From: Legionella sp.
Lineage (GTDB): Bacteria > Pseudomonadota > Gammaproteobacteria > Legionellales > Legionellaceae
Direction of reading: 5' to 3'
Assembly (NCBI GenBank): GCA_030158115.1
Contig: JAOATK010000017.1
Location: 1 to 61,916 of the forward strand
Length of the DNA: 61,916 nucleotides
Positions 46 through 61,916 of the stretch are shown here, in pieces. The position numbers and the translations under genes are program-made. The notes below the pieces were generated by a model. That model saw only the letters and a program-made list of their open reading frames with translations. It did no database searches and was not told the DNA's origin. How positions within the stretch are numbered: position 1 is the first letter of the stretch; each line of letters starts with the position of its first letter.

Positions 46-77
46 CTGTACATGATAAAAAAATCTGTCATGTACAG
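46..77. other. Intergenic hairpin
   Basis: Perfect 10-bp inverted repeat (CTGTACATGA and its complement) around a 12-base A/T-rich loop, just downstream of the minus-strand gene that ends at 108. It could end that transcript, but the T-run lies in the loop and not after the stem, so a terminator role is uncertain. Confidence 0.4.
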
Positions 78-107
78 AGAATAATACCACTGCCTTGAAT
101 AAATTTC

Positions 108-947: not shown

Positions 948-957
948 AATCAACTCC

Positions 958-1614: not shown

Positions 1615-1633
1615 GATCGCTCCTTGATCTCAC

Positions 1634-1677
1634 TATATTGTGCAGCCACAAAATTAACTTTGTGACTACACAATATA
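1634..1677. repeat. Imperfect palindrome, CACAAA/TTTGTG family
   Basis: A 44-bp imperfect inverted repeat with outer arms TATATTGTG and CACAATATA and inner arms CACAAA and TTTGTG around an ATTAAC centre. A similar palindrome lies at 43754-43794, so this is likely a dispersed intergenic repeat. It sits between the hypothetical operon and mutY, which are divergently transcribed. Confidence 0.5.
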
Positions 1678-1803
1678 TAAAACGATAGACCATCTAGTAA
1701 GACTTTGCGAATCATTTTAAATTTTTTTTCGCATCATGAGCAGGTATTAATCATATTAAATTTAAGGTACTATTTTATTGAGTTAATTATTAAGTTTTGA
1801 AAC

Positions 1804-2856: not shown

Positions 2857-3166
2857 CATTTCCTTCCAAAATACAAATAGCTGCTTTAGCATCTGGCTGT
2901 CCCAAATTGGCTGCTGCTTTAATCCAAAACCAGGCTTTTTTACGATCCTCTATCACGCCTCTTCCGTAATAATACATATATCCCACTGCATATTGGGCAT
3001 CAGGATTTCCTCTTTCGGCCTCGGGCTTTAAACGTACAAAAGCTTTTCGGTATTCTTCCGCTCTAAAATTGATGATTCCTTCGCGTAAATTGATTGTGTG
3101 TGCAAAACATCCTGCCAAAATCGGGATAAAAAGAAGACTCAATAGTAATTTATATAGTTGTTTCAT
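2849..3166 (-). CDS. Sel1-repeat lipoprotein
   Basis: A 105-aa predicted lipoprotein: residues 1-19 form a signal peptide ending in the lipobox LAGC. The remainder carries one clear Sel1-like (SLR) unit (YAVGYMYYYGRGV then KKAWFWIKAAA) and part of another. Sel1 repeats mediate protein-protein contacts. The ATG follows the lspC stop codon directly, with GAGGA as ribosome-binding site, so it is co-transcribed with lspC. A link to type II secretion is suggested only by this adjacency. Confidence 0.85.
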   Translation of the reverse strand: MKQLYKLLLSLLFIPILAGCFAHTINLREGIINFRAEEYRKAFVRLKPEAERGNPDAQYAVGYMYYYGRGVIEDRKKAWFWIKAAANLGQPDAKAAICILEGNVK

Positions 3167-7945: not shown

Positions 7946-9019
7946 CTAATAATGACGAACACGCTCTGTAATTTGACAAAGAAGTTCATACCCGGAAGTG
8001 CCTGCAGCCTGCGCAATACGTTCAACTAAAATATGAGTTCCCCATAGCTCAACGGGCGTCTCTAATTGAATATCAGGATGGTCGGTTAGATTGATTGCCA
8101 TCATGTCCATGGAGACCCGCCCTATGATAAAGACTTCTCTTCCTTGCACCCAAACCGGTGTGTTTTCTGCAATGTGACGTGGGTAACCATCACCATAACC
8201 TGCAGCAACAATACCAATTCGCGACGGTTTGTCGCTCTTCCAAGTACCGCTGTACCCTATTGGAATTAAAGGGGGATTCTCGTGAATGGCACTAATTGCT
8301 GAAACAAACCGCATGACCGGCAATAGTCCTAAATCAATAGCTGTTTTATTTGCCAATGGAGATACACCATACAGCATGATTCCAGGCCTGACTGCATCTG
8401 CATGTGTTTTTGGAAATGAAATAATCGCAGCAGAATTAGCCATACTGCGTTGGCTAAATCCAGCCACAGAGATACTTTCAAACAGCTCGATTTGCTGGGT
8501 ATTTTCTATGCGAAAAGGCTCATCAGCACAAGCCATATGAGTCATTAAACCAATGTCTTTATCAACCCAAGCACAATGTTGCAAGGCATCCATCACGTCT
8601 TGTAATTCATCAGGCTCAAAACCTAATCGACGCATACCTGTATTTATTTTGATCCAGATTTTAATAGGAGTAGATAATGGTGTATTTAATAACCATTGAA
8701 GCTGGTGAGGTTGATGTAATACACAGCCGAAATCATATTGGGCTATTGTTTTAAATTCATCAGGACTAAATACCCCATGAAAAAGAATACAAGGTGTTCT
8801 ACTTCCAAGCTTGCGAATCGCTAAGGCTTCTTCAACGCAAGCCACACCAAACGCATCAACCTGCCCATCTAATACAGGAATGACTATGGGTAAACCACAA
8901 CCATAGGCATTGGCTTTCACCATGGCAATGATTTTCTTACCTGGAGCAAAATGCTTTATTCGCTCCAAATTATACAGTAAAGCGCCCGGATTAATGATTA
9001 CTCGGGTAGGCCTTGACAC
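7946..9019 (-). CDS. alr: Alanine racemase
   Basis: PLP enzyme that interconverts L- and D-alanine for peptidoglycan. The 357-aa length is usual. The PLP lysine is K35 in [11 protein letters not shown], and the second catalytic base is the tyrosine in IGYSGTW (near 255). [12 protein letters not shown] and VGRVSMDM-type segments (here [14 protein letters not shown]) are present. The start is GTG at 9019, one base after the dnaB stop at 9021, so alr is likely translationally coupled to dnaB. The same dnaB-alr order occurs in other gammaproteobacteria. Confidence 0.96.
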
Positions 9020-9020
9020 G

Positions 9021-10403
9021 TTAATCTACCCCTTGATAACCATTAAAGGCTAAATCTTCAAAACGAGTGTATTTACCAATGAAGGCAACACGCACCTTGC
9101 CTATAGGGCCATTTCGTTGCTTGGCGATAATAATCTCTGCCGTGCCCTTATCTGGACTGTCTTCGTTATAAACCTCATCTCGATAAATAAAACAAATTAA
9201 ATCCGCATCTTGCTCAATGGCTCCTGACTCTCTTAAGTCAGACATCACGGGTCGTTTATCCGCACGTTGCTCCAAACTACGATTTAGCTGAGATAAGGCA
9301 ACCACGGGAACTTGTAATTCTTTAGCCAAAGACTTAAGGCCTCGTGAAATTTCTGAAATCTCAGCCGTTCTGTTTTCAGCATGAAAACCTGGGACTTTCA
9401 TGAGCTGCAGATAATCCACAACAATTAGGCCCACAGACCCATGTTCTTTTGCCAAGCGGCGTGCACGAGCTCGCATTTCTGAAGGACTTAACGATGGGGT
9501 ATCATCAATATATAAAGAAGCTTCCGATAACATATGCACCGCAGAAGTCACACGTGGCCAATCATCATCATCTAATTTACCTGTTCTTATTTTATGCTGA
9601 TCAATACGACCTAAAGAAGACATCATTCTCATGGCCAGAGAATCTGAGGGCATTTCCATAGAAAAAACCAGCACTGGTTTTCCGGATTTAATTGCCGCAT
9701 GCTCTGCCATATTCATTACTAAGGTTGTTTTACCCATTGATGGACGGCCAGCGACGATCACCAAATCAGAAGGTTGTAAGCCGGAGGTCATTTCGTCTAA
9801 ATCAGATAAACCAGTCGCTAAACCCGTGATCGCATCACCATTATGGTAAAGCGCATCGATTTTTTCTACAGCACGAACTAAAATAGATTTAATATTTTCA
9901 GGCCCGCCATCACCTGCGGTTTGCTCACCAATAGCAAACACTTTAGTTTCTGCCATATCAAGTAATTCAGGGACTTCTCTGCCGCTGGGGTTATAGGCTG
10001 AATCAGCAATCTCTGTTGCAACTGCAATAAGTTGTCTTTGAACTGATTTTTCTCTGACAATATCGGCGTAAGCCGCAACGTTTGCTACGCTGGGCGTATT
10101 ATTCGCCAGCTCAAACAAGTAAGACTCGCCACCCGCATCATCTAATTCATTATGAGACTTTAAAGCATCAAGCAAGGTCACCACATCAAAGGGTTGATCT
10201 TTCTTAGCGAGGGCAACAATCATTCTGAATAAAATACGATGTTCCGTACGATAAAAATCTGCCTCACATAATTTCGTGCTTATTTTATCCCATGCCTGAT
10301 TATCCAGCATCAGTCCACCAATAATAGACTGCTCTGCCTCTGCTGAATGCGGTGGTCTTTTTAAAGGATCAACGGCTTTTTTAGGAATTTGAAGATCAAG
10401 CAT
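9021..10403 (-). CDS. dnaB: Replicative DNA helicase DnaB
   Basis: Hexameric helicase that unwinds DNA at the replication fork. The 460 aa comprise the N-terminal collar domain (about 15-125, beginning [19 protein letters not shown]) and the RecA-like motor. Walker A is [10 protein letters not shown] (near 217-226). The Walker B region IVVDYLQLM and the DnaB signature [14 protein letters not shown] are intact. No intein or insertion is seen. The gene is followed at once by alr. Confidence 0.97.
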
Positions 10404-10489
10404 ATTTTAGTCACAAAATCACTATAAGAAACGAGAACTATTGTAAAGCTCTTTTCAAGGGTTGTCACCTAGCCTTAACTCCATTGAAA

Positions 10490-10513
10490 CGATCAAAACT
10501 ACCGTTTTGATCG
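10490..10513 (-). terminator. Hairpin after the DUF2147 gene
   Basis: Perfect 10-bp stem (CGATCAAAAC and its complement) with a 4-base loop, 17 bases past the stop of the minus-strand DUF2147 gene. Only a short TTT follows on that strand, so termination strength is uncertain. A partial GTAGCCTGGATGCC repeat end lies between the stem and the stop codon. Confidence 0.45.
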
Positions 10514-10530
10514 CATTCGAGGCATCCAGG

Positions 10531-10968
10531 CTACTTTTTTGCGTTTTCTTGCGCGCGCACCCAAATTTGCGTTCGGCCTATGAAAGACAGGCCAATATAT
10601 CCTCTTACATGAAGTTTATTACCTTCAAGCTTTGCTTTTAAACGATATATTTTACCTGATTTAGGATCAAGAATTGAACCACCAGCCCACTCATCTTGTC
10701 CTTCTTTTTTCAAATCCCACAAAATACGCAAGCCTTCAATTTTTTTGTTTTTAAAGGCACCAGGACAAACAGAACAAATTCCCGTTTCACCCGGTTCTGG
10801 ATAGATAGTAGTAAGAACACCACTTAATACATCATCCGCGGCGCTAATAGAAATAATCGCTCGTTTCACTCCCGTCTTTTCATCAATTGAAATCCAGTTG
10901 CCAACAGGCGATCCTGCAAAAACTACAGATGTAAAAAACAAGCCACAAAAAATCTTCCCTAATTTCAT
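10531..10968 (-). CDS. DUF2147-family secreted protein
   Basis: A 145-aa protein with a signal peptide (residues 1-18, cleaved after VFA). It has the DUF2147 layout: GNWISIDEKTGVKRAIISI near the start, then an insert with two cysteines (GICSVCPG) and the W-x-GG-x-I-DP-x-SGK-x-Y core (WAGGSILDPKSGKIY), and the ending VRGYIGLSFIGRTQIWVR. These are periplasmic lipocalin-like beta proteins of unknown role. It is a single gene flanked by a hairpin downstream. Confidence 0.88.
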   Translation of the reverse strand: MKLGKIFCGLFFTSVVFAGSPVGNWISIDEKTGVKRAIISISAADDVLSGVLTTIYPEPGETGICSVCPGAFKNKKIEGLRILWDLKKEGQDEWAGGSILDPKSGKIYRLKAKLEGNKLHVRGYIGLSFIGRTQIWVRAQENAKK

Positions 10969-11035
10969 AGTTGCTTTCCTTAATTGCCATGAATTAACAG
11001 CTTAAACTATGATTGTGAATTATGTAAAGGCACCC

Positions 11036-14000
11036 CTAACTCAAGGGCATAAAAAATTGTTGAATATCCTCTTCACTCAAACTTATCGCCCGAGCAGGAT
11101 CAGCGGATAAAATGCCATCTACTAACTGACGCTTACGTTCTTGCATACCTAAAATGGCTTCTTCTACAGTGCCTGAGGTAATTAATTTATAAACAAAAAC
11201 CGGGTTTTCCTGGCCAATTCTATGAGCTCTATCTGTTGCCTGATCTTCCACTGCAGGGTTCCACCAAGGATCATAATGAATCACAGTATCCGCACGAGTT
11301 AAATTGAGTCCTGTACCGCCTGCCTTCAAGCTAATCAAAAATATTGGCGTATTCCCCTCTTGAAACTTTTCAACCATTGCTTGCCGATTTTGAGTTTGTC
11401 CTGTTAATTTTAAATAGTCATAATTTCTAAGGGTTAACTCATCTTCAATCAATTTCAACATGGATGTAAACTGAGAAAAGACTAATACTTTTCGACCCTC
11501 TTCCACCAGGTTATCCAATAGCTCCATAAGCGTCTCAAGCTTGGCGGAGCTATTATGTGCTATTGCTGCCTCAGGCAAAGATAGCAAACGGGGATCACAA
11601 CAAATCTGACGTAATTTTAGTAAGGCATCGAGAATAATAATATGGCTTTTACCTAAGCCTTGCTTCACAATTGCATCGCGTACTTTTTTCTCCATGCTCA
11701 TACGAATAGCTTCATATAAATCACGTTGAGGGCCAACAATTTCTATTGTACGCATCATCTCTGTTTTTGGTGGCAACTCACTAGCCACCTGATTTTTTGT
11801 TCTTCTAAGAATGAACGGGTTCACACGTTTTGTGAGCACTTCTCGTCGATCTAAATCTGCGTATTTTTCTATAGGAGTTCTAAACCAAAGCCTAAATTGC
11901 TTTGCATCTCCTAATAACCCTGGCATTAAAAAATGAAATAATGACCACAATTCACCTAAATGATTTTCTAGAGGGGTTCCCGTTAAACACAAGCGGTGAG
12001 TGGCATTCAACTGTTGAATAATTTGTGTTGTTTTAGTGCGAGCATTTTTAATAAATTGAGCCTCATCCAAAATAAGATAATAAAATGCATAACTGATAAA
12101 TTTTTCTTTGTCTCGATGAATTAAACCATAGGTAGAAACGACAACATCATAATCATCAAAATTATCCTGATGACGCTCACTGCCATGATAAACTAACACA
12201 TTAAGGTTTGGCGTAAAGTGCTTGGCTTCTGCAGACCAATTTCCTACAAGGCTTGTGGGAGCTACAATTAAAGTAGCACTCTTTAAACGACCTTGTTCTT
12301 TTTCATATTGTAAATGAGCCAAGGTCTGAACGGTTTTACCTAGGCCCATATCATCGGCTAAAATGCCACTAAAACGACTGGTTCGTAAAAATTGCAACCA
12401 ATTCAATCCCTGACGTTGATAATCTCTTAAGGTCGCGTTTAATCCAGTAGGAATAGGTATTTCAGGAATATCAGTCAGCTTAATTAATCGACGCAATTCG
12501 TCTCTTAAGGTTTCTGCTCCTTGCCAACGTGATTTGGTGGCTGCGATTGCAAGCTCTGCTTCTTGCATCAGGATAAGCTGATATTTATTGACTTCTAATT
12601 GTTCATTTTCATCAATATGGCGTATACCAAATTGCAGTAACAGGCGCACCAAAGGCTTAATTCGCCCCATTTCCAGCTGCAAGAAACGTCCATCGTGCAA
12701 AGGTAGCTTTACTAATTGCGCATCAGGAAGGCCATCTAATTCATCGCTATTGTACCGCTGAATTAAATCCGCCACTAAGGGCACAATACTAACCGGTTTT
12801 CCTTCAACCAAAATACCTAATTGATAAGAAAAGAAATCTGTGGAATTTTCTTGGAGGTCAGAATACCATTCAACTTCATCTGCACTTATTATTTCCTGGT
12901 ATAAAGTGCTTTGTATCTTGACCTGCCAGCCTTGATTTTTTAGTTGAGGAATTGCCTGTTTGTATAAAAAATCCAAGTCAGCTGGATGATTTACATTATC
13001 TAATACCCAATCGGCCTGCTCAATCTGTTGCCATTGGAATTTTTCCCAACTTTTTATCGCCCTAAGTTTTAAAAACTGATGCACCTCCTCCAATTTGAGG
13101 GCCTCAAATGATTTATCACGCTGATATTGAACTAAAATATCTTCTTGCTGAGAAACTACCATTTCACATGTGTCATTACTCGAAATCAGTAAATCTGCAT
13201 AATCAAACATAATACGCACTGAAAATAAAACCTTAGAAGTTTCTTCATCATCATAACCACTCACCGCATCGAAAATTAACACCGGTACAGGAGTTACCTC
13301 GCGTGTCTCTGATTGCTCAAAAAATTGTGGGACAGGAAACTCAGGACAAGTCTGGATCATTTTTTTTGCCAAAAGCTTTGCCTGTTCAATAGGAATAGGA
13401 GGCGCATCTAATAGATGGCCTAGCTGTTTTATAGGATAAGGCGTTTTTAAATAGCCCATGCGCGTTTCGGCATAATCAAAATACCAGCTGTCATCTAATA
13501 GTAATGGTTTGATGACCTCATTTTCATGCATTAATAATAAATGTTGATTTCCATTATGAGAGAGCACCCACTGACAAGTACCTGATTGAGGCTCTCCCAT
13601 CTGAATCGCAATATCTTGATCATCAATAAAAAAAGCTCTTTTTGTAGCAATAATTTTAGTCAATAATTCACTATTACGAATGCTTAAAGAATCAAACCAG
13701 CTGGAAACCCCACACTTAAACAATAATTGAGCTACTAGCTCATTATCGTCTTCAATAAAATGTTGTTTTTTAGAGTCAGATAAGGTGTTAAAAGGGATCA
13801 TTTTTCCATAACCACCCCGTTTTAATAATTTAGCCAAAGCTAATTTTATTATTACTTTATGCTCATAACCATTTAGTCTTAGCTCAATAAGATAAACTAA
13901 ATGGTGTGTTACTTCTTGACTTGTAGGAACGGAAAACTCTTGGGCTCGTAAATTTTTTAGCCAACTGTCTAATCTTCTATCTAAGTTAGCAGGCTCAGTC

Positions 14001-51847: not shown

Positions 51848-53353
51848 TCAGGTTATCTTAACCACTTGAAAGTAGAACTTTTGTTTAAGGGTGGGTGATG
51901 CCGTATTGTCTACTAATAGTTCCTGGATTTGAGTGACCGGTGTTGTCATTGTGGCAATGCTAGCATAAGAGAATAAATCCAACTCTTTTGCAATTAATAT
52001 AACCAACTGACCTGACATATCGAATTGATTGTCCCAATAGTTATACATCAAACTATCAATACCGAATACATGTCTACTCATCGCATGATAAGCTGTTTTT
52101 ATTTTTCCCTCATTTAAAAATTTTTGCTGATAAAATGTAAGCTCGCTTGCGATATGATAAGAATCTAATGACACTAAAATAGGGACCTGCTGAGTACTAT
52201 TTTCAAGATTGGCGGCAATGTTATTGATGCCTAAGGCTAGGTTATCCCAGTACATGATTTTACTAAACAGCTTTTGATTAATGTCTTTGGGCTGGCCTGT
52301 GACTAGGCATATTAAAAGCCCTGTATAACATGCTGTTAGGATGAATGCTGTTATCGCCCAATACTTACGACACTCCATGCCATATGCTTTGGTATTATCA
52401 AAAAGTAACAGGGATAACCAGGGAATTAACGCTAACAAACTAGGGCCAATCCAGTTTATTTTGATGCTATGAGACACAGAAAATACCGCAAAAAATCCAA
52501 GTGGTACTAGTGAAAAAATCATTAAAAAAAGGTGTGTTCTTTTAGGCAGTGTATGAAAACCAAGCTTTTCCATAAATAATTTAATTCCCCCCAAAACACC
52601 GATTGGAGTTAAAAAAACAAAGAGTAAGCCAAGAAATTCTGGCAATGAAAAAGAAAAAGAACCGTGAAATCTTCTGCTGCTTTGAAATAAAAAAGAAACC
52701 CAAGCATGAGTGTAATTCCAATAAATCACAGGAGAAAACAGTAAAAGTGCAATTAAGGCACACAAATAAGGTTCTTTCTTCCTAAACCAAGTTCGTGAGT
52801 TCTTATCTAAGATCATATAGACAATCGTCGCAGGTCCCAACAAAACAATGGTATATTTTGATAATAATCCAAGCCCTATAGCGATACCTGCGCTGTACCA
52901 GTTAAGATTTTTTCCTTCAACCAATGCTTTATAAAGATAATATAAACTTGCTGACCAACACGTGATTAAGGGAATATCTGGGGTGATGACTAAGGCATGA
53001 GTGAAGAAAAAAGGAAGTATCGATAATAGAAAAATGCTATATTTTCCTGCTCCATCTCGCAGTAAATTAGTGAGTTTATAGCTATAGAGTACTGTGATTA
53101 ACCAACACGGTAAAGTTGCAAAACGCACACCCCACTCTGTTGAGCCAAACAAATAAGTGCCGCTCTTTATCAACCAGGCAACCATTGGAGGATGATCTAA
53201 ATAGCCAAAATCTAAGTGCCGCGCATAATTCCAATAGTAAGCCTCTTCAACCAACAAATTGGCATCCATCATAAACACCATTTTTAAACCAATTAAAAAC
53301 AACACAATGAAATACATGATGGGCATTGTTAGGGTTTTAGCATTTTCTGTCAT
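51848..53353 (-). CDS. ArnT/PMT-like membrane glycosyltransferase (GT39/GT83)
   Basis: A 501-aa polytopic protein with about 11-13 transmembrane segments. The first periplasmic loop has the acidic, aromatic pattern LLVEEAYYWNYARHLDFGYLDHPPMVAWLI, typical of ArnT/PMT-like (GT-C) transferases that use polyprenyl-phosphate sugars. A soluble part follows near 380-501. Substrates may be lipid A, a surface polysaccharide or a protein; the sequence does not tell which. No polymyxin-resistance genes lie next to it. Confidence 0.85.
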   Translation of the reverse strand: MTENAKTLTMPIMYFIVLFLIGLKMVFMMDANLLVEEAYYWNYARHLDFGYLDHPPMVAWLIKSGTYLFGSTEWGVRFATLPCWLITVLYSYKLTNLLRDGAGKYSIFLLSILPFFFTHALVITPDIPLITCWSASLYYLYKALVEGKNLNWYSAGIAIGLGLLSKYTIVLLGPATIVYMILDKNSRTWFRKKEPYLCALIALLLFSPVIYWNYTHAWVSFLFQSSRRFHGSFSFSLPEFLGLLFVFLTPIGVLGGIKLFMEKLGFHTLPKRTHLFLMIFSLVPLGFFAVFSVSHSIKINWIGPSLLALIPWLSLLLFDNTKAYGMECRKYWAITAFILTACYTGLLICLVTGQPKDINQKLFSKIMYWDNLALGINNIAANLENSTQQVPILVSLDSYHIASELTFYQQKFLNEGKIKTAYHAMSRHVFGIDSLMYNYWDNQFDMSGQLVILIAKELDLFSYASIATMTTPVTQIQELLVDNTASPTLKQKFYFQVVKIT

Positions 53354-53553
53354 GATTGGTTAGCCTCATTTTAACTCCTACCACCTCAACATGAGTAGGA
53401 CAAGGCGCCAAGAATACTATTGGTTGCTAAGATCTGCAATTAAATCAAATCTAAATGTAATTTTAATACTAAATTAGCTTAAATAAGATCGAGTGCTTCA
53501 CGATACCCTGTAATTGTTTATTAGTCACGGGTACTTAAGAAGTTTACGCCCTT

Positions 53554-53627
53554 GTAGGCTGGGCTGTAAACCCCAGCAAATAATCTTCCAAATGCCATAC
53601 AATGCTGGGTTTTACAACCCAGCCTAC
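53554..53627. repeat. BIME-like double palindrome, GTAGGCTGGG type
   Basis: A 74-bp unit with GTAGGCTGGGCTGTAAACCC at the left and GGGTTTTACAACCCAGCCTAC at the right, each forming a small hairpin and complementary to each other over most of the arms. It is similar in size and layout to 20952-21023. It occupies part of the 442-bp gap between the ArnT-like and SidB-like genes (53354-53795), which otherwise contains no recognisable gene. Confidence 0.75.
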
Positions 53628-53650
53628 GATTAGCAGCAATTATAATAACA

Positions 53651-53727
53651 AGCCTGGATGCAGCGCAGCGTAATCCGGGATCGGTGGCACCAAATTCCCG
53701 GATTACGCTGCGCTGCATCCAGGCTAC
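53651..53727. repeat. Long perfect palindromic repeat (GTAG family, copy 2)
   Basis: Perfect 30-bp arms (53651-53680 and 53696-53725) around a 15-base loop, starting AGCCTGGATGCAGCGCAGCG and ending CTAC. It matches the copy at 7300-7380 except for scattered base changes that are compensated in the other arm. It lies 23 bases after the double palindrome, so two repeat families are stacked in this gap. Confidence 0.85.
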
Positions 53728-53795
53728 AAGAACGTTGACAATTACTAAAATTTCTTAGGAGGGATCGTCATTATCTGCAAGTAACTCAGCATGAG

Positions 53796-55025
53796 CTACT
53801 TTAATATAGGCCCGCTATTCACAGAAGCATCCACTTTTCTTTGAAAAAAATCGCTAAAAAAGGTAGCTGCATTCATACCTGAGCGATTACGCAAGTTAAT
53901 TAAATAAAGATTATGGCCCTCAAATTGATGGCCAGTCTCCATTTTCATGCTGCTTTTAATTTTTTCTCTATTGTTAACTAAGCTTTCTTTTTCCTCCGTC
54001 TCAGTCTCAGCCAGCTTTTTAAGTTGCGCATCTATTTTCGCCTTGTCAGCTCGTCGTTCTGAAGTCAGCTCTTTATGAATGGATGCGTAATGTGAAATTA
54101 CCCCATCATCGCAACGATCAACTCTTCTTTCTCGATTTGATCTGACAACTATATAGGCTCTATACTCTTTAGGAATACTTTTAAATGCACTGCCTGCATT
54201 AATTTCCCACTTAACTAAAGCAAGAGCTAATTTAATAAATGGTTTAGCTAACCAACCAAGTATTATCCCTTTCATACTGTCATTATGGCCTTTTAATACT
54301 TTACCTTTTTGATCACGTGCTAGGCGTATATAACCTACTAAAAAATTAGTAATCGAAGAAAAAGAGCGTCCATTAAATACCTTAATAGGTTGCCCTATTT
54401 GATGGAAATGTTGAGCGACTAAAGAGGCTATCCCCGCACCCAGAGAGTGGCCTTTCAGGGTAATATTTTTTGATGAAACACCTTTATCTAATAATCGTTG
54501 AACTTGGGCAATACCATCAGTCACTAAATCTTTTGCAGACTTAGGCTGGCCAGTGCTCTGCTTCACGTTGCGAAAATTAAAACCCACAACGTTAGCCTTC
54601 AATACGTTTGCGTCCTCAGACATCTCATCAATGATATCCTCATAACACATACCATTCCCAACCAAATTGATAATATACATTTGATCTTTAGTGGCGATTT
54701 CTTCGTTGTTTGGTACGTATTTTATTTCAAGCGTATCTAACTGAGCTTTATCATAAGTGATTACCTGATGTTTTTCATACTGTTGATTCATCTTTTTATT
54801 AAATGCATCTACGGCGGCTTCATCAATAGTTACTTCCCCCATAGAATGGTTGCGTTTTTGTGCTGATAGCACTAAATGACTAACCAACCCACCAAACAAT
54901 TTATTTGCGCCAAGTTTTAATAAATCCCACAGTAAAATAGGAGGAAAAATAATCCGAATTCCGATAAATTTAAACCAATGCCAGCGTGTGTATTGAGGTT
55001 TAGGAGCTTGATAAGTTTGAATCAT
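53796..55025 (-). CDS. SidB-like lipase/alpha-beta hydrolase; putative Dot/Icm effector
   Basis: A 409-aa protein with a lipase nucleophile elbow GHSLGAG (S194), preceded by MYIINLVGNGMCYED (the usual first strand and oxyanion region), and likely acid/His residues near 290-330. Two hydrophobic segments (about 24-36 and 43-54) may associate with membranes. The N-terminus YTRWHWFKFIGIR and overall plan resemble my memory of the SidB/Sdb effector family of Legionella, but this is unverified. The tail is charged. The gene lies alone between repeats and an MFS exporter, a typical accessory position. Confidence 0.7.
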   Translation of the reverse strand: MIQTYQAPKPQYTRWHWFKFIGIRIIFPPILLWDLLKLGANKLFGGLVSHLVLSAQKRNHSMGEVTIDEAAVDAFNKKMNQQYEKHQVITYDKAQLDTLEIKYVPNNEEIATKDQMYIINLVGNGMCYEDIIDEMSEDANVLKANVVGFNFRNVKQSTGQPKSAKDLVTDGIAQVQRLLDKGVSSKNITLKGHSLGAGIASLVAQHFHQIGQPIKVFNGRSFSSITNFLVGYIRLARDQKGKVLKGHNDSMKGIILGWLAKPFIKLALALVKWEINAGSAFKSIPKEYRAYIVVRSNRERRVDRCDDGVISHYASIHKELTSERRADKAKIDAQLKKLAETETEEKESLVNNREKIKSSMKMETGHQFEGHNLYLINLRNRSGMNAATFFSDFFQRKVDASVNSGPILK

Positions 55026-55297
55026 AAATCACCTGATGTTTATTTATTAATCGTCAACTATAACTTTAAAACATTAAGGAAGTATGAAGGAATACTAATT
55101 ATAATTGAGGCAAAGATCACTAATAAGAGAGCGTTAGGAAGTACGCTAGCAAATAAATTTACCAAGGATTGACTAACTCCTTAAAATTGCACGAAACTTG
55201 GCAACATTATTTTAGATATTTATGAAAAAGTAAGCATGTGAATCGCTAGTACAGCAATTAATTCACTTCAATGATCAATTGATATATGGAGTAAATT

Positions 55298-56491
55298 TTG
55301 AATAAACAATTATCTCTGTTTGTGATAATCGCCTCATCACTAATAACATTAATGACCAGTGATATTTTTTTACCTAGTATGCCACAGATTGCGGAATATT
55401 TTTTCGTAGATAATTCTAAAGCGCAGCTTTCAATCTCATTTTTTTTAGGTGGGCAAATACTTGCGACCCTTTTCTGGGGAGCTTTATCAGATAATATTGG
55501 TCGAAAAAAAGCATTCTCAATTGGAATGTATTTATTTTTCACAGGGACAATAGTTTGTATTTTATCAACTAGTATCTCTATTTTTTTACTAGGTAGGCTG
55601 ATACAAGGCATTGGAGGAATTGTCGCTCCTGTTGTGGGTTGGGCGCTCATACAAGACCTTTATCCCAAAGATAAAAGTGCCGCAATGATGTCCTGGATAG
55701 GAAGTATTATTGCCTTAGCACCAATGACTGCCCCCGCACTAAGTGGACAAATCACCAAATATTTTCACTGGAAAGGCGATTTTTATTTTATTGCGATCAT
55801 TACTGGAGTTATCTTATTTGGACTATCTGCACTACCAGAAAATCGTTTAAAGACACAAAAAAACAATTCAACAAGGCAAGCAATAAAACAATATACGAAC
55901 ATTCTAAAGAATAAATTATTTGTGAGTTATGTCTCTTTATTTGCTTTATTAGCATGTGGTCAATGGTGCTTTTTAACCATGATTCCATTTTTATATAAAA
56001 ATGTAATGCATTTATCTGCTGATAAAGTTGGGCTATTAATGGCATTAAGTGCCTCTTTTTTCATTTTGGGCGCAGCCCTCGCCTCTCGTCTGCTGCATCG
56101 ATTAGAAATTGATAAACTTCTTGGTATTAGTACCAAATTATCAACACTTAGTGGAGTCATATTATTAGGACTTCACTTATTTGGTATTTATAACCCCATC
56201 CTTATCTCTTTAACATTTGGATTTTATCTTTTTTGCGCTTCTTTATTATGGGGGGCAAGTTCATCAAGAGCATTACAATGCTACGAAGAGCAGCGAGGTG
56301 CAGCATCTTCAGTGCGAAGTTTGCTAATGATAGGTTTTTTTGCTGCAGGTAGTTATTTAGGCACTTTAATAAGGAATGATAGTCTTTTAGATGTATCTAT
56401 AGTGCTTATTATTTTATCTATTAGTTCGATTTCATTGCGTTTTTCGGTGGTGATGGAAAATCAAAAGGTAAATTTAGTCAATACTATCTAA
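55298..56491 (+). CDS. Bcr/CflA-type MFS drug-export transporter
   Basis: A 397-aa 12-helix transporter of the major facilitator superfamily. The Bcr/CflA pattern is visible: DIFLPSMPQIAEYF at helix 1, WGALSDNIGRKKAF as the MFS A motif, and LGRLIQGIGGIVAPVVGWALIQDL at helix 4. It starts with TTG after GGAG. Members export bicyclomycin, chloramphenicol, sulfonamides or cysteine metabolites; the substrate here is unknown. It lies immediately left of the tRNA-end scar, so it may belong to the core or to an island. Confidence 0.85.
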   Translation: MNKQLSLFVIIASSLITLMTSDIFLPSMPQIAEYFFVDNSKAQLSISFFLGGQILATLFWGALSDNIGRKKAFSIGMYLFFTGTIVCILSTSISIFLLGRLIQGIGGIVAPVVGWALIQDLYPKDKSAAMMSWIGSIIALAPMTAPALSGQITKYFHWKGDFYFIAIITGVILFGLSALPENRLKTQKNNSTRQAIKQYTNILKNKLFVSYVSLFALLACGQWCFLTMIPFLYKNVMHLSADKVGLLMALSASFFILGAALASRLLHRLEIDKLLGISTKLSTLSGVILLGLHLFGIYNPILISLTFGFYLFCASLLWGASSSRALQCYEEQRGAASSVRSLLMIGFFAAGSYLGTLIRNDSLLDVSIVLIILSISSISLRFSVVMENQKVNLVNTI

Positions 56492-56831
56492 GCTTATTGT
56501 TGTGGGTTCGCTGGAATTAACACTGACTTGTTGATCGTAATTGGTGCCTAGGGCCGGAATCGAACCTGGTTTTAACCTATTAATTTTAAATAATATTGAT
56601 AATAAGGACTCGAATCTTACCCAAGATCTTACCCAACTTCGAGTATGATAACTGATTTAAAGCATTACGAAAAGATGCGAAGATATAAGTTTATAATTTA
56701 CGAATTCTGATATTATTGATATAACCGTTCCTATGCTATATATTTTCACCCTTATTTGATGTTAACTAAATCTGTAACTATATTTATATTAGGGATTTGT
56801 TTATTTTTAGCTTTTTTAGTTGGAGTAAGTC
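56492..56831. other. Intergenic region with tRNA-end scar and short direct repeats
   Basis: 340 bases without a convincing gene. It contains the tRNA 3'-end copy (56542-56566) and a 10-bp direct repeat ATCTTACCCA (56614-56623 and 56626-56635). The remaining sequence is A/T-rich with no open frame that I trust. The combination is what remains when an integrative element has used a tRNA as target. Confidence 0.5.
56542..56566 (-). other. tRNA 3'-end copy, probable attachment-site scar
   Basis: On the minus strand this reads GGTTCGATTCCGGCCCTAGG followed by CACCA: a T-loop with TTCGATT, a T-stem half, a 7-base acceptor half and CCA. The next bases upstream do not pair, so no complete tRNA is present; the homology stops within the T-stem. 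Such a partial 3' end is characteristic of an attL/attR site left by a tRNA-targeting integrase. The parent tRNA is outside the window and not identified. Confidence 0.7.
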
Positions 56832-57011
56832 ATGAACGTTAAAGATAAAAAATCTAAAACACCATTTAAAACAGGCCAAAGTTTTCCCACAGCAAAGACT
56901 ATGAGAGTTATTGGCCGCGGTACACTAATGATTGACCCAAATGAAGTCTATGAAAGTGATAACTATAAAGAGTTATTACGTCATGCTAAGGATGTAATTA
57001 AAAGCAAATAA
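56832..57011 (+). CDS. Small hypothetical protein (59 aa)
   Basis: A 59-aa basic protein preceded by GGAG seven bases from its ATG. It begins MNVKDKKSKTPFKTGQSFPT and has TMRVIGRGTLMIDPNEVYES, then a helical end YKELLRHAKDVIKSK. There is no membrane segment. The next gene follows after 12 bases with its own AGGAAAGG, so they form a two-gene operon. I recognise no family. It lies to the right of the tRNA scar and is probably part of transferred DNA. Confidence 0.65.
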   Translation: MNVKDKKSKTPFKTGQSFPTAKTMRVIGRGTLMIDPNEVYESDNYKELLRHAKDVIKSK

Positions 57012-57023
57012 CTAGGAAAGGAT

Positions 57024-57725
57024 ATGCTTGCCATATTTATTTTTATGGTTCTCACTAATTCATATATTGTCCTACGCTTTTCTCCAACTCAATATTTGAA
57101 GCTTCATAGGTTTAGAGGCCAACTACTATACATTAAAGCAATTGCTATTGGTTCGTTTATTGTCTTTTTAGCCTATGCAATCGAAAGAGTTTTATTTGCA
57201 CCATCCATACCCAGCGGTATTGAAAATGAAAATACAATATTTAAGCTGTTTATTATTACTTTAATAATATCATTTGGCTACATATTACTGTGTCATCTAT
57301 CCTTAATTTATAAAGGGTTTAAATGTGAGTGCGGTCAAATTAAGGAACTACTGATTAAATGGCATCGTAATGGAAAAAACATGGTATTTAAGCAGTTATT
57401 ACAAGATAGCCCCATTGATGTGATTTTACTTTCTTCATTAGAGAAAGATAAATTCCTTTTAATTTCAATGTCCGATCGGAAAGCATACGTTGGCCGAGTC
57501 GTAAGTATGGGAGAGCCAAACGAACTGGATGGGCCAGATCAAGAAATAGCCATCGTACCAGTTATGAGCGGTTACAGAGATAAAGACACTATGCAACTAC
57601 AGTTAACTACCGTTTACGAAAAAGTGAATGACAAAGATCCCCTCATAGTTTTAAGACAAGAAAATATTGTTTCAGTTTGTGAATATATTGAGTCTTTATA
57701 CACTTCTTCCCAGAAAAGCAATTAA
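57024..57725 (+). CDS. Membrane protein with cytoplasmic beta-rich domain, unknown
   Basis: A 233-aa protein with three hydrophobic segments (about 2-18, 36-57 and 72-97), followed by a soluble domain (about 100-233). The region LLISMSDRKAYVGRVVSM and LQLTTVYEKV looks like a small SH3/LSm-like barrel similar in outline to DUF6338-type proteins, but I am not sure. It follows a 59-aa gene by 12 bases. It lies beside the att-like scar, so an element-borne role is possible; function unknown. Confidence 0.7.
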   Translation: MLAIFIFMVLTNSYIVLRFSPTQYLKLHRFRGQLLYIKAIAIGSFIVFLAYAIERVLFAPSIPSGIENENTIFKLFIITLIISFGYILLCHLSLIYKGFKCECGQIKELLIKWHRNGKNMVFKQLLQDSPIDVILLSSLEKDKFLLISMSDRKAYVGRVVSMGEPNELDGPDQEIAIVPVMSGYRDKDTMQLQLTTVYEKVNDKDPLIVLRQENIVSVCEYIESLYTSSQKSN

Positions 57726-57886
57726 AAATTACTCTAGTTGAGCACACGTAACTCATGTAAATATTATTACCCTTGTCCAAGAGCATAAAGAAATATTATT
57801 TTTTATATCTAATCTGGGTATACCTAAACTCATTTTTATGACAACATTCACCCTTTCCTAGTTTCTTAAATATTAAATGTTGCATT

Positions 57887-59269
57887 ATGGAATTAGCAGA
57901 TACCTCCCAATCAAGTTTTTCTCATCGCGCTGGAGGTATTAAAGAACTCTGCAATATCTCATTTCCAATGATGCTTATAGCACTTTCTGGCTGTTTAATG
58001 CTGTTTTTTGATCGGTTAGTCCTTGCGCACTATTCAATTACTGCAATGAATGCTGTAGCCATAGCAGGAGCTGCATGTGCTGTATTTCAATTTGGGGCTA
58101 CTGCAATCACATCTATCGCAGAAATTTTTGTAGGTCAATATAATGGCGCAGGAAAGAAAAAACTGTTAGGTGAACCAGTCTGGCAAATGCTTTGGTTCTC
58201 TTTGTTCTTGTTCGTTATTTTTATACCTCTGGCATTTTTAACAGGAAACATATTTCTTCCTATAAAATATCAAACCGATGGCTTACCCTATTTTCAATAC
58301 ATTATGATATTTAGCCCTATACTAGCTATGAATGCAGCAATTGCCTCCTTTTTTATCGGTCAAGGAAAAGTCAAATTAATTACCTTTGTAACTTTTTTCG
58401 GAAATATATTAAATTTAGCTTTGGGTATTGTATTAGTATTTGGTTACGCATCATTAAAAATTCCTTCCCTAGGCACTCTCGGTGCTGCTGTTTCAACTAT
58501 TAGCGCCCAATTGATACAACTATTAGTTTTATTTTCTGTTTTTATTAAACGGGATAACCGGATTCAATTTGGCACCTCTCACTATCAATTTAAGTTTAAG
58601 CGCTTTTGGAAAAGCATGAGTATAGCTTTACCAAATTCATTAGGACATATGATAGAAATTACTGCATGGACTTTTTTAATTTGTATGTTATCTCGTGTTA
58701 GTGAAGAACATGTCACCCTTTTATCAATTGGACAAAGCATCCTACTTCTTTTTGCATTTGCTTCAGAAGGACTACAAAAGGGTATTATTGCGCTTGCATC
58801 TAACTATATCGGGGCAAAGCAACCATGGATGATTAAAAGACTTTTACACTCATCTTTACTGATAGTTTTCTTTATCATTATGTTGCTAGCAATCCCTTTA
58901 TTACTCATACCAGACTTAGTAGTTAACTGTTTCGTTTCTCAAAACTTATCAGGTACAAAACTATTAGAGCTTCAATCACAAGCTGAAATCGTATTATTTT
59001 GGATATGGATTTATTTTATTTTCGATATTGTTGTTTGGGTTTTTGCAGCAATACTTACCGCAGCCGGCGATACAGCATTCATCATGGTAATGAATGCTGT
59101 TAACATTTGGCTATTTGCCATACTTCCCATCTACATATTTGTAGTAAAAATGCATGGCTCCCCGACTCTAAATTGGAAATTAGTTACAATATATCTTATT
59201 GCTAATATAGTGTGCTTTTATTGGCGCTACAGTAGCAATAAGTGGAGGCAGCTTTGTTTAATTACCTAA
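57887..59269 (+). CDS. MATE-family efflux transporter
   Basis: A 460-aa transporter of the MATE (DinF/NorM-like) superfamily with 12 hydrophobic segments in two halves. The first half begins KELCNISFPMMLIALSGCLMLFFDRLVLAHYS, and the second KSMSIALPNSLGHMIEITAWTFLICML. Members export cationic drugs or peptides by Na+ or H+ exchange. The ATG at 57887 has a poor ribosome-binding site. Its stop abuts that of the convergent serS-like gene (59269/59270). The neighbourhood suggests export of, or protection from, a compound connected with tRNA synthetases. Confidence 0.88.
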   Translation: MELADTSQSSFSHRAGGIKELCNISFPMMLIALSGCLMLFFDRLVLAHYSITAMNAVAIAGAACAVFQFGATAITSIAEIFVGQYNGAGKKKLLGEPVWQMLWFSLFLFVIFIPLAFLTGNIFLPIKYQTDGLPYFQYIMIFSPILAMNAAIASFFIGQGKVKLITFVTFFGNILNLALGIVLVFGYASLKIPSLGTLGAAVSTISAQLIQLLVLFSVFIKRDNRIQFGTSHYQFKFKRFWKSMSIALPNSLGHMIEITAWTFLICMLSRVSEEHVTLLSIGQSILLLFAFASEGLQKGIIALASNYIGAKQPWMIKRLLHSSLLIVFFIIMLLAIPLLLIPDLVVNCFVSQNLSGTKLLELQSQAEIVLFWIWIYFIFDIVVWVFAAILTAAGDTAFIMVMNAVNIWLFAILPIYIFVVKMHGSPTLNWKLVTIYLIANIVCFYWRYSSNKWRQLCLIT

Positions 59270-60541
59270 TCACCTTTTTATGATATCTTTGCCAATATAA
59301 GGGCGTAACACCTCGGGAATTATCACACTACCATCTTTTTGTTGGTAATTTTCAAGAATTGCCATTAATGTTCGACTTAAAGCAATAGCAGTGCCATTTA
59401 GGGTATAAGGATAGACTCTTTTACTCTCTTTATCTTTGTATCTGATATTTAATCGACGTGATTGAAAATCAGTGCAATTTGAGGCAGATGTTACTTCACC
59501 ATATTTTTCATCTGACTCCCTTCCTGGCATCCATACTTCAATATCATACTTCTTAAAAGCCGCCGCTCCTAAATCGCCAGCACATATACGAACAACTCGA
59601 TAAGGCAGCTGAAGTTTTTGGTAAATTGTTTCTTCTATCTTTAAAATCTCTTCTAAAGCAGCCTCGCTATCTTCTGGCTTCGTAATTTGGAACAATTCAA
59701 TCTTGGAAAATTGATGAACTCGATACAACCCCTTACTCTCCCTACCACCAGCCCCAGCCTCTCTACGAAAACAATGACTCTCAGCAACATATTTTAGTGG
59801 TAATTTATGTTCATCAACAATCTCATCTGCATGTATACCTCCAACAGTAATTTCTGCTGTTGCTATAAGACTCAGATCCAAATCCTCTAAATTATAAATA
59901 TTAGACTCATCGCCTCTAGGAGAAAATCCAGTTCCAACCATTATCGATTTTTTTGCTAAATCAGGAGTAATAAGAGTTGTGTATCCCAATTCTGCAGCAG
60001 TTTTCATTGCAAATAACTTTAATGCCAGCTCAAGAAGTACCGCTTCATTTTTTAAGAAATAAAATTTCGCACCAGTTACTTTTGTACCACTATCAAAATC
60101 GATTAAATCAAGCGTCTTACCTAACTCGACATGATCCTTAGGAACAAAATCAAATTCGCGAGGAACCAAATGAGTTCTCAAAACTACATTTTCAGCATCA
60201 CTTTCACCAAGAGGAGTATCTTCTGCTAACAAGTTAGGGATCGTAAGCATTAATTCATGATAAAGTTCGTCTATTTTTCGAAGCTCTTCTTCGAGTATTG
60301 AGATTTCATTATTTAGTGCCCTTCCTTTGGTGACCAAATCTTGTTTTTCTAGATCTTGTAGTTTAGGTATGGTTTTGGCTATCTGATTCGATTCAGCACG
60401 TAGATTCTCTAAGTTTGACATGTGTGCTTTACGTGTAGCGTAAGTTTCTAATAGATTATCTAGATCAGCATTAACGCCCCTTTTATGGATAATCTCTTTA
60501 ATCTTTTCTCTATTTTCAATAATTAATTTTATATCTAACAT
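59270..60541 (-). CDS. serS: Seryl-tRNA synthetase (probable additional copy)
   Basis: Class II synthetase that charges tRNA-Ser. 423 aa from the ATG at 60541 (AAGG upstream; an earlier TTG is less likely). The N-terminal antiparallel coiled coil (about 25-100) that grips the tRNA is present. Motif 2 reads HCFRREAGAGGRESKGLY then RVHQFSKIEL (about 258-285), and motif 3 reads NGTAIALSRTLMAILENYQQ, so the active site looks intact. GLYRVHQF and EVWMPGRESDEKYGEV look divergent from the form usual in gammaproteobacteria. It abuts the MATE gene and lies next to an AlaRS-like gene. That makes a second, specialised copy likely, not proven. Confidence 0.85.
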   Translation of the reverse strand: MLDIKLIIENREKIKEIIHKRGVNADLDNLLETYATRKAHMSNLENLRAESNQIAKTIPKLQDLEKQDLVTKGRALNNEISILEEELRKIDELYHELMLTIPNLLAEDTPLGESDAENVVLRTHLVPREFDFVPKDHVELGKTLDLIDFDSGTKVTGAKFYFLKNEAVLLELALKLFAMKTAAELGYTTLITPDLAKKSIMVGTGFSPRGDESNIYNLEDLDLSLIATAEITVGGIHADEIVDEHKLPLKYVAESHCFRREAGAGGRESKGLYRVHQFSKIELFQITKPEDSEAALEEILKIEETIYQKLQLPYRVVRICAGDLGAAAFKKYDIEVWMPGRESDEKYGEVTSASNCTDFQSRRLNIRYKDKESKRVYPYTLNGTAIALSRTLMAILENYQQKDGSVIIPEVLRPYIGKDIIKR

Positions 60542-60575
60542 GTTCAACCTTAAATTTAGGGTAATACTTAGGTGG

Positions 60576-61811
60576 CTAATTTACTATATCATGCTTTACC
60601 ATTCTATTGTTTTCAGAATACTTATCTAAAATAGTATGAAAATAAGCCATAGCAGATTTGATATTTAACGGAAATAAATTGTATTTTTTAAATGCCTTAT
60701 TTTTTAATTTATCATAAGCTTCGGCACATGATATTTTATTACTTAGAACATCATGAGCACATGTACGCGAATACTGCATTAATTTATGTTCTCTTTGTCT
60801 ATAGTCTGTAGTACTTGTTTCGATTGACGCCAATAATCTTGAAATACGTTCAGGCTTAAAATGTCGATAATGGGCATATTCCAAAATCACTGATCTTAAA
60901 TCAAAATTGGGTTTTATTAGTTCGTAAATTTCTGCAGCATTTTTAACAGCTTTCCGGACAGAGGATAATCTATTCTTACCTTTATTAGTTAATGCCCCAC
61001 TTATCCCGCTATGTAAGTCAACATTATTACCATAAAAAACTGTACTTAAAACAATAGAATCCATCAATTGCATATATAATGGCTCATAATGATACGGTAT
61101 GAAAGAAGCTATTTCAGAATGTGCAAAGGGGCTTAAAGCACTGGAACTGCGCCATAAAAAAGCCTCAACCCCCAAAGCTATTTCAAAACATATTGGAACT
61201 CCCTTTTCTTCTAGAATGATTATTTGTCCAATATCAATATCATCAACACAATGTATATCTTCCACACATTTACCTTCAGGAAGAATTCCAATATTAATCC
61301 CTCGACCAATGACATCCCGAAGCCCATAGACCCATTGATAATCATCAGGAGGTGTTTTATCTACTAAAATAATCACATCCTGCTCAATAAGTGGCTCCCA
61401 ATAAATTTTATCTTTTGATGCTACATGAAATACTAATTTATTTTGAGGCACTTTAAGCACCTCTAATAAAAGCTTTATCATATCTTGACAAGATTTTCTA
61501 AGCATACTCATCGGAGCAAATGCACCAAACATGCTAAAACAACTCATTCTTTGCAAGAAATAGTCTTCCTGAGGAGTATATTTAGTTTCGTGTAAACGAA
61601 TACACTCCTGCAATACAAACAAAGGATGTGCTGGAATATTATTAGAAAGAACCATCGGTTTAAAAGGTATGATGGCTGAATTCGTATAAAGAACACTTCG
61701 ATCAATTAAAGGAATAATAGGTTCCGCAGGAATGTGAAGATAACCATTATTCTCAAAAAAATTAAAGCAAATATTTTTAAGTTGTTTTATATTTTCAATT
61801 TGCTGCCACAT
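60576..61811 (-). CDS. Alanyl-tRNA-synthetase-like catalytic-core protein
   Basis: A 411-aa protein that follows the AlaRS aminoacylation domain: KNICFNFFENNGYLHIPAEP and LYTNSAIIPFKPMV match the AlaRS N-terminus, QECIR (R72) the motif 2 arginine, SCFSMFGAF the FFEMLGNF segment, and ALGVEAFLWR (212-221) the motif 3 region. Differences are large: the GGKHNDLENVG loop is replaced, and the motif 3 GLER is GVEA, losing the ATP-binding arginine at that position. The mid (tRNA-binding) region can be followed to about 300. There is no editing domain and no C-Ala. It lies 34 bases upstream of serS, so an operon is likely. Function: paralog with altered or lost activity. Confidence 0.7.
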   Translation of the reverse strand: MWQQIENIKQLKNICFNFFENNGYLHIPAEPIIPLIDRSVLYTNSAIIPFKPMVLSNNIPAHPLFVLQECIRLHETKYTPQEDYFLQRMSCFSMFGAFAPMSMLRKSCQDMIKLLLEVLKVPQNKLVFHVASKDKIYWEPLIEQDVIILVDKTPPDDYQWVYGLRDVIGRGINIGILPEGKCVEDIHCVDDIDIGQIIILEEKGVPICFEIALGVEAFLWRSSSALSPFAHSEIASFIPYHYEPLYMQLMDSIVLSTVFYGNNVDLHSGISGALTNKGKNRLSSVRKAVKNAAEIYELIKPNFDLRSVILEYAHYRHFKPERISRLLASIETSTTDYRQREHKLMQYSRTCAHDVLSNKISCAEAYDKLKNKAFKKYNLFPLNIKSAMAYFHTILDKYSENNRMVKHDIVN

Positions 61812-61916
61812 TTTAGCCGAGAGTGTTCATCTAACTGTGTCATCTCGTCAGTCATTTCAAACCTAAATTAAGCCGCCCGTCAAAATATATCTGGAGCTGC
61901 GAAATGATCAGTGCCC
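61812..61916. other. Right edge, possible end of an upstream gene
   Basis: On the minus strand an open frame (about 21 codons, ALIISQLQIYFDGRLNLGLK then TGA) enters from the window edge and ends at an ATGA overlap near 61853. It may be the C-terminus of the next gene, but with so little sequence I cannot tell. A short frame from that ATG ends after 22 codons inside the AlaRS-like gene. Confidence 0.3.

What the first reader, a model, noticed from the sequence alone, without database searches (positions are those of the whole stretch)
60576..61811. AlaRS catalytic-core paralog with a changed active site
The protein tracks the AlaRS aminoacylation domain and the start of its tRNA-binding region, but has neither editing nor C-Ala domain. 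The GGKHNDLENVG loop is replaced, and motif 3 reads GVEA where GLER is expected, so normal Ala-tRNA formation is doubtful. Truncated or altered synthetase paralogs are known to act in metabolite biosynthesis or regulation. Paired with a SerRS and an exporter, it may activate an amino acid for a small molecule or bind tRNA for another purpose.
Basis: partly seen in the sequence, partly recalled or inferred. Interest (0 to 1): 0.8.

Follow-up and report, generated by a model that had tools for sequence, protein, structure and literature searches.

The report
Orphan AlaRS-like protein, ATP site lost
A Legionella-type bacterium carries a cut-down copy of the enzyme that loads alanine onto tRNA; it seems to have lost the parts needed to use ATP and may instead hand an amino acid from a loaded tRNA to another molecule, but it is a lone gene whose front edge is cut by a mobile element.

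Summary
The observation largely holds. Window 60576-61811 (-) is an intact 411-codon ORF with a significant AlaRS aminoacylation domain (PF01411, 46.8 bits, residues 16-135) and no editing or C-Ala domain. Pairwise BLAST alignments run on through motif 3 and between them place Asn to Gln (Q196), Asp to Glu (E210) and motif-3 Arg to Ala (A217). The first two are the substitutions reported for AcmF of ascamycin biosynthesis, a truncated AlaRS-like enzyme that moves Ala from Ala-tRNA to a nucleoside sulfamate (PMC12945691); the spacing agrees. I favour an aminoacyl-tRNA-dependent transferase that no longer activates amino acids (0.4); no activity is shown. The 'pair' with SerRS and exporter is not a conserved unit: that SerRS is a second, ordinary-looking SerRS in 25 of 143 order genomes, while P0001 matches no other of those genomes at E<=1e-12; the MATE gene is convergent. 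The contig ends in an IS256-type element 7 bp before the ATG, so the gene has lost its leader and may be a relic (0.25).

The parts
60576..61811 (-). AlaRS-like protein P0001, 411 aa
   Evidence: GC 32.2%, lowest of the 33 window genes compared
61407..61766 (-). significant AlaRS aminoacylation-domain match (PF01411 profile 7-130)
   Evidence: 47.9 bits; 46.8 bits
61596..61598 (-). R72, motif-2 arginine retained
   Evidence: invariant column
61224..61226 (-). Q196 where AlaRS has Asn (AcmF: N219Q)
61182..61184 (-). E210 where AlaRS has Asp (AcmF: D232E)
61161..61163 (-). A217 where AlaRS motif 3 has Arg (GVEA for GLER)
59270..60541 (-). second SerRS, its ATG 34 bp after the AlaRS-like stop; intact motifs; probably ordinary
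61819..61916 (.). end of an IS256-type element and of the contig; starts 7 bp before the AlaRS-like ATG

Best explanation
P0001 is a horizontally acquired, stand-alone AlaRS core that has given up amino-acid activation and works as an aminoacyl-tRNA-dependent aminoacyl transferase, in the manner of AcmF. A full synthetase charges a tRNA; P0001 binds the charged 3' end in the old aminoacylation pocket. An acceptor sits where the adenylate used to be, and the aminoacyl group is transferred to it, with Glu210 in the place of AcmF Glu232. Shown: homology of the N-terminal core, truncation, and (by alignment) the three active-site changes. Inferred: acquisition from outside, binding of charged tRNA, the transfer itself, and the acceptor. 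The amino acid is not known; Ala (from the housekeeping AlaRS) or Ser are possible. The adjacent SerRS is a hint for Ser, but a weak one.
For: Core homology. N to Q and D to E, the pair of substitutions reported for AcmF, are placed by pairwise BLASTP to an AlaRS (6e-11) and to a Rhizobium stand-alone AlaRS-related protein (1e-5) and by MAFFT. In 46 AlaRS the Asn and the DTGMGLER motif (Asp and motif-3 Arg) are present in 46 of 46. Spacing R-Q 124 and Q-E 14 in P0001 against 126 and 13 in AcmF (residue numbers from PMC12945691); N-D is 23 in 46 of 46 AlaRS. The pattern [DE]xxQ...E within 5 residues of the AcmF spacing occurs in 0.96% of 20,000 shuffles; with a G-hydrophobic-E motif behind it, in 0.035% anywhere and in 0 of 20,000 in place (patterns chosen after seeing the sequence). 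The motif-2 Arg, which I take to match AcmF Arg93, is kept. Precedent: AcmF is AlaRS-like, truncated, 370 aa in JCM9888 and acts on Ala-tRNA.
Against: No biosynthetic partner genes are visible, and the contig ends. AcmF's own sequence was not held, so no direct comparison was made. Residues 136-411 alone match AlaRS no better than shuffles, and hhalign and two MAFFT runs aligned motif 3 differently, so the tRNA-recognition domain is not shown and the active-site reading rests on the other alignments. R-N spacing of 126 also occurs in 1 of 46 AlaRS. Synthetase adjacency is not conserved. The gene was found in one genome only, and its ribosome-binding site looks weak.
Confidence: 0.4

Rival explanations
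1. A recently captured gene on its way out: cut from its promoter, leader and partner genes by the IS256-type element, intact only because the event is young; no present function.
For: IS end 7 bp before the ATG; Shine-Dalgarno pairing -1.7 kcal/mol, 22nd of the 25 ATG-start genes compared; lowest GC of 33 window genes compared; no match at E<=1e-12 in the other 142 order genomes. The same kind of IS end also interrupts two other gene cassettes in this genome.
Against: The reading frame is intact over 411 codons. The IS may supply a promoter. The specific N-to-Q and D-to-E pair looks like selection before capture rather than decay.
Confidence: 0.25
2. A non-catalytic tRNA- or ligand-binding protein, as HisZ or SLIMP are for other synthetase families: the core is kept as a sensor or as a subunit.
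For: Changed ATP-site residues; paralogs of this kind are described in PMC9437257 (passages).
Against: The changes are not random losses but include the AcmF pair. The tRNA-recognition domain is not supported statistically. No regulated operon is visible.
Confidence: 0.17
3. An amino-acid-activating ligase of altered chemistry (carrier-protein or small-molecule ligase).
For: The motif-2 Arg and a Trp that I recall as part of the amino-acid pocket (W160) are kept. PMC9437257 (passages) lists amino acid:carrier-protein ligases as paralogs of AlaRS as well as of SerRS. The six Rhizobium and Streptomyces stand-alone AlaRS-related proteins read keep N, D and the motif-3 Arg and may activate amino acids.
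Against: By alignment P0001 has changed the Asn, the Asp, the motif-3 Arg and the KHND loop. No carrier protein was recognised next to it on the held side.
Confidence: 0.13
4. A protein delivered into host cells that binds host tRNA or charged tRNA.
For: Legionella-type genome; lone, AT-rich, apparently recently acquired gene.
Against: No secretion signal was tested. The bacterial AlaRS match (3.1e-9) is better than the eukaryotic one (3.3e-5). In the passages seen of PMC5570926 the only tRNA-related guess for a Legionella effector is a weak one (lpg2847, leucyl/phenylalanyl-tRNA protein, E 7.1).
Confidence: 0.03

Closest known systems
AcmF, alanyl-tRNA synthetase-like aminoacyl transferase of ascamycin biosynthesis (Streptomyces)
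   Same: Truncated AlaRS core; reported N219Q and D232E changes match Q196 and E210; motif-2 Arg kept; similar residue spacing
Stand-alone 'alanine--tRNA ligase-related' proteins of Rhizobium plasmids (three read: 245, 281 and 317 aa as annotated) and Streptomyces plasmids (one annotated, 394 aa; two unannotated frames of 386 and 437 codons)
   Same: AlaRS core without editing or C-Ala domain; shortened motif-2 loop; the Rhizobium ones also have a short hairpin and EIGN, near P0001 DIGQ
   Different: In the six read, N, D and the motif-3 Arg are kept; about 21-27% identity to P0001 over partial alignments
Housekeeping AlaRS of the same genome (C47, 868-codon frame)
   Same: Aminoacylation domain, 25% identity over residues 10-135
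   Different: P0001 lacks editing and C-Ala domains and, by alignment, the ATP-site residues
VlmA/VlmL pair of valanimycin (VlmL as a dedicated SerRS is recalled)
   Same: A dedicated SerRS beside a Ser-tRNA-dependent step
   Different: VlmA is a GNAT-fold (FemX-like) enzyme, not AlaRS-like (PMC12945691)

Membership tests
AcmF-type AlaRS-like aminoacyl transferase | AlaRS-homologous aminoacylation domain without editing and C-Ala domains | tested here: met
AcmF-type AlaRS-like aminoacyl transferase | Asn to Gln in the active site (AcmF N219Q) | tested here: met
   Q196 by alignment; other aligners differ; not confirmed by structure
AcmF-type AlaRS-like aminoacyl transferase | Asp to Glu, the essential AcmF Glu232 | tested here: met
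   E210 by alignment; other alignments differ; not confirmed by structure
AcmF-type AlaRS-like aminoacyl transferase | tRNA recognition domain present | tested here: inconclusive
   MAFFT aligns residues around 277-300 and 372-384 to it, but the blocks score at or near chance
AcmF-type AlaRS-like aminoacyl transferase | partner synthetase dedicated to it | tested here: inconclusive
   second SerRS 34 bp downstream, but the association is not conserved
AcmF-type AlaRS-like aminoacyl transferase | direct sequence relationship to AcmF | not tested
AcmF-type AlaRS-like aminoacyl transferase | aminoacyl transfer from charged tRNA to a small molecule | not testable with these tools
   needs biochemistry
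Alanine--tRNA ligase (TIGR00344 equivalog) | full-length score above the curated cut-off | tested here: not met
   43.0 against 457.05 bits
Alanine--tRNA ligase (TIGR00344 equivalog) | active-site Asn, Asp and motif-3 Arg | tested here: not met
   Q, E and A by alignment; EIWN-type motif and DTGMGLER in 46 of 46 AlaRS
Amino acid:carrier-protein ligase (aaRS-derived) | working ATP site and a neighbouring carrier protein | tested here: inconclusive
   ATP-site residues changed by alignment; none recognised among the ORFs of 80 aa or more on the held side; the other side lies beyond the contig end
SerRS plus AlaRS-like plus exporter operon | conserved gene association | tested here: not met

The most novel reading that the evidence does not exclude
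P0001 is an AlaRS-derived aminoacyl-tRNA-dependent transferase outside Streptomyces that has switched its donor from Ala-tRNA to Ser-tRNA supplied by the second SerRS encoded just behind it, modifying a Legionella small molecule whose other genes lay beyond the IS element.
Probability: 0.1. Interest if true: 0.75.

Novelty: new variant of a known kind. Interest (0 to 1): 0.48.

Why it matters
A second, very distant protein with the same two active-site substitutions and spacing would show that this repurposing of a synthetase core arose or spread beyond Streptomyces. It also gives a sequence signature (Asn to Gln, Asp to Glu, motif-3 Arg lost) for picking transferases out of the many 'alanine--tRNA ligase-related' proteins. 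The finding is weakened by being a single orphan gene with no visible pathway.

Tried and rejected
Rejected: (1) A conserved SerRS/AlaRS-like unit: SerRS2 stands without it in its relatives. (2) A link to the C15 cassette (flavin reductase, haem-oxygenase-like diiron enzyme, methyltransferase, ATP-grasp ligase), which runs into the same kind of IS end: in the two relatives whose genes I listed (L163, L165) no AlaRS-like gene follows (a hydrolase-like gene in one, and within two genes a probable membrane transporter in both, named by eye only); the five carrier genomes have no P0001 match at E<=1e-12; and by eye the IS target duplications of C15 and C16 do not match. (3) A link to the C43 ATP-grasp cassette: in the four relatives whose genes I listed (L188-L191) a large membrane protein follows, which I read as ABC-transporter-like without a family search. 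Over 13 loci the only P0001 hit is the full-length AlaRS frame of one genome, some 6 kb away. (4) A VlmA-like reading: VlmA has another fold. (5) Defence or phage families: no hit for P0001. (6) A tRNA gene in the window or an Rfam RNA in 52000-61916: none.

Led nowhere: direct homolog searches. Genome contigs and viral contigs pattern scans gave none. The genome search with P0001 over 143 order, 369 class, 398 phylum and 21 further genomes, which overlap, gave one match besides the window's own gene: residues 10-135 to an 857-codon frame, presumably AlaRS (G395, 5.4e-12). In 57 relatives at E<=1e-3 55 have a match, and every match other than P0001 itself lies within residues 6-136, mostly in frames of AlaRS length. 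Plasmids gave 9 partial matches, 4 of them annotated alaS and the rest without annotation under the match; phages gave 4 partial matches in unannotated records; the C-terminal part alone gave none in plasmids at E<=5. The tests went against the assignment and are reported as such. The GKHND count is circular, since rows were picked by that motif.

Full report
WHERE. The window is contig C16 (61,916 bases) of a 2.03-Mb, 50-contig genome. It is of Legionella type: its AlaRS domain is 77.8% identical to that of Legionella adelaidensis, and G113, listed as same genus, has a contig of the same length, with the SerRS match at the same place, as the named record 'Legionella sp. isolate MGR_bin153'. 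No species is claimed.

THE OBSERVATION. The ORF at 60576-61811 (-) is real and intact, 411 aa. Pfam gives one family, PF01411, 46.8 bits (cut-off 30.3), residues 16-135. NCBIfam TIGR00344 gives 43.0 bits against an equivalog cut-off of 457.05. The 15 PDB matches are all AlaRS, best 3.1e-9. The housekeeping AlaRS is intact on C47 (868-codon frame). In 143 order genomes, 140 have PF01411 matches. Among the rows listed, a further match at the catalytic end of the profile, beside a full-length AlaRS, occurs only in this genome; G159 and G161 show pieces of what look like broken-up AlaRS genes. The six other extra matches listed cover profile 472-552 in frames of 212-250 codons, presumably AlaX-like. 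Weaker rows were not listed, so weak cases cannot be excluded.

THE ACTIVE SITE. Sequence statistics secure only about residues 8-135. An HMM of 46 AlaRS scores the whole protein 42.2 bits but residues 136-411 -2.4 bits, while the best of 1,000 shuffles reach 5.4. HMMs that include the stand-alone relatives do no better than shuffles. An ungapped two-block test put motif 3 elsewhere, 562 of 3,000 shuffles doing as well. hhalign spans residues 5-405 (probability 95.6) but aligns motif 3 differently, as do two MAFFT runs, one of which agrees on Q196. Against this, pairwise BLASTP to an AlaRS (L169, 6e-11) and to a Rhizobium AlaRS-related protein (L209, 1e-5) both extend to motif 3. Both place DIGQ on EIWN/EIGN and FEIALGVE on the IDTGMGLE/IDVGFGLE segment; L169 also places GVEAF on GLERF. 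MAFFT agrees. So Asn becomes Gln (Q196), Asp becomes Glu (E210) and the motif-3 Arg becomes Ala (A217). The motif-2 Arg (R72) and a Trp (W160) are kept. E210 to A217 is 7 residues, as D to R is in 46 of 46 AlaRS.

THE PRECEDENT. I read the outline and abstract, section 5 and passages of PMC12945691 and passages of PMC4257720. AcmF is a truncated AlaRS-like protein. It lacks most ATP-site residues, carries N219Q and D232E, depends on Glu232, and moves Ala from Ala-tRNA to dealanylascamycin, the Ala-tRNA being made by the extra AlaRS AcmD; Gly and Ser mischarged on tRNA-Ala are also accepted. The underlying ACS Catal. 2024 paper was not seen. Residue numbers give AcmF R93-Q219 126 and Q219-E232 13; P0001 has R72-Q196 124 and Q196-E210 14; AlaRS have N-D 23 in 46 of 46, and R-N 134 in 36 of 46, with 126 in 1. 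In 20,000 shuffles of residues 136-411, [DE]xxQ...E within 5 residues of the AcmF spacing arises in 0.96%, and with G-hydrophobic-E behind it in 0.035% anywhere and in none in place. These patterns were chosen after seeing the sequence.

RELATIVES. No full-length relative was found (the genome sets overlap, and the pattern scans find close relatives only). An AlaRS-domain query of plasmids matched 155 records, 85 of them Rhizobium and 12 Streptomyces. In the spread listing of 60 the Rhizobium rows are low-identity matches, most annotated 'alanine--tRNA ligase-related'; the Streptomyces rows include ordinary AlaRS. The six stand-alone proteins I read (L209-L214) keep N, D and the motif-3 Arg. 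P0001 is therefore a further-changed member of a loose set of AlaRS cores.

THE NEIGHBOURS. The SerRS at 59270-60541 has its ATG 34 bp after the AlaRS-like stop. It is a second SerRS, the other being on C17, with intact motifs, and closest outside Legionellaceae to Alphaproteobacteria and then Planctomycetota MAGs. It occurs in 25 of 143 order genomes including this one, and none of the others has a P0001 match at E<=1e-12. None of 80 SerRS2 loci has a P0001 relative nearby: nothing at E<=0.01, best E 0.43; some of these loci are short. The MATE gene (57887-59269, +) is convergent and has no match in 6 of 6 SerRS2 loci. So the pair is probably accidental or recent.

THE LEFT-OVER EDGE. 61819-61916 is the end of an element of which 52-59 terminal bases also end seven other contigs. 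Over 84% of the query it is 71% identical to a place in a Legionella lytica plasmid annotated as IS256 family transposase and hypothetical protein. It begins 7 bp before the ATG. The upstream region pairs weakly with the anti-Shine-Dalgarno sequence (-1.7 kcal/mol, 22nd of 25 ATG-start genes compared). The gene has the lowest GC of the 33 window genes compared, 32.2% against a mean of 38.9% for the other 32. This speaks for a young arrival cut from its leader, and keeps the relic reading alive.

VERDICT. The best single account is an AcmF-like aminoacyl-tRNA-dependent transferase core (0.4): homology of the N-terminal core, truncation and, by alignment, the residue changes are shown; activity, donor and acceptor are inferred. 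Papers: searches listed no report of an AlaRS-like paralog in Legionella; the library holds open-licence papers only.

Noticed in passing
L048 (G000:C15) 8761-12419: Cassette of flavin reductase, haem-oxygenase-like diiron enzyme (weakly BesC-like), methyltransferase and ATP-grasp ligase; the diiron enzyme is 90-94% identical in five other genomes of the genus. In this genome the ATP-grasp gene runs into the IS256-type end.
   Followed up: partly
L049 / L200 (G000:C43) 53-3079: Cassette of two small conserved proteins, a partner protein and a RimK-like ATP-grasp; the ATP-grasp is found in 12 other Legionellaceae genomes and the cassette in the 12 stretches fetched. Looks like a peptide-modification cassette. 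Its ATP-grasp gene runs into the IS256-type end here.
   Followed up: partly
L209, L213, L214 (Rhizobium plasmids): Stand-alone AlaRS-core proteins (245-317 aa as annotated) with N, D and motif-3 Arg kept, apparently widespread on Rhizobium plasmids; no function was found in the papers searched.
   Followed up: partly
L210, L211, L212 (Streptomyces plasmids): Stand-alone AlaRS-core proteins (394 aa; unannotated frames of 386 and 437 codons) with EVWN and DTGLGLER kept; candidate comparators for AcmF.
   Followed up: no
window 59270-60541 and 25 of 143 order genomes: A second type of SerRS, only 39% identical to the other SerRS of this genome, scattered through Legionellaceae; reason unknown (inhibitor resistance is one possibility).
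   Followed up: partly
ends of G000 contigs C25 and C11: The only two of eight IS256-type ends whose flanks share a target duplication (CCAAGCCA and its complement, read by eye), suggesting they are neighbours in the genome.
   Followed up: no
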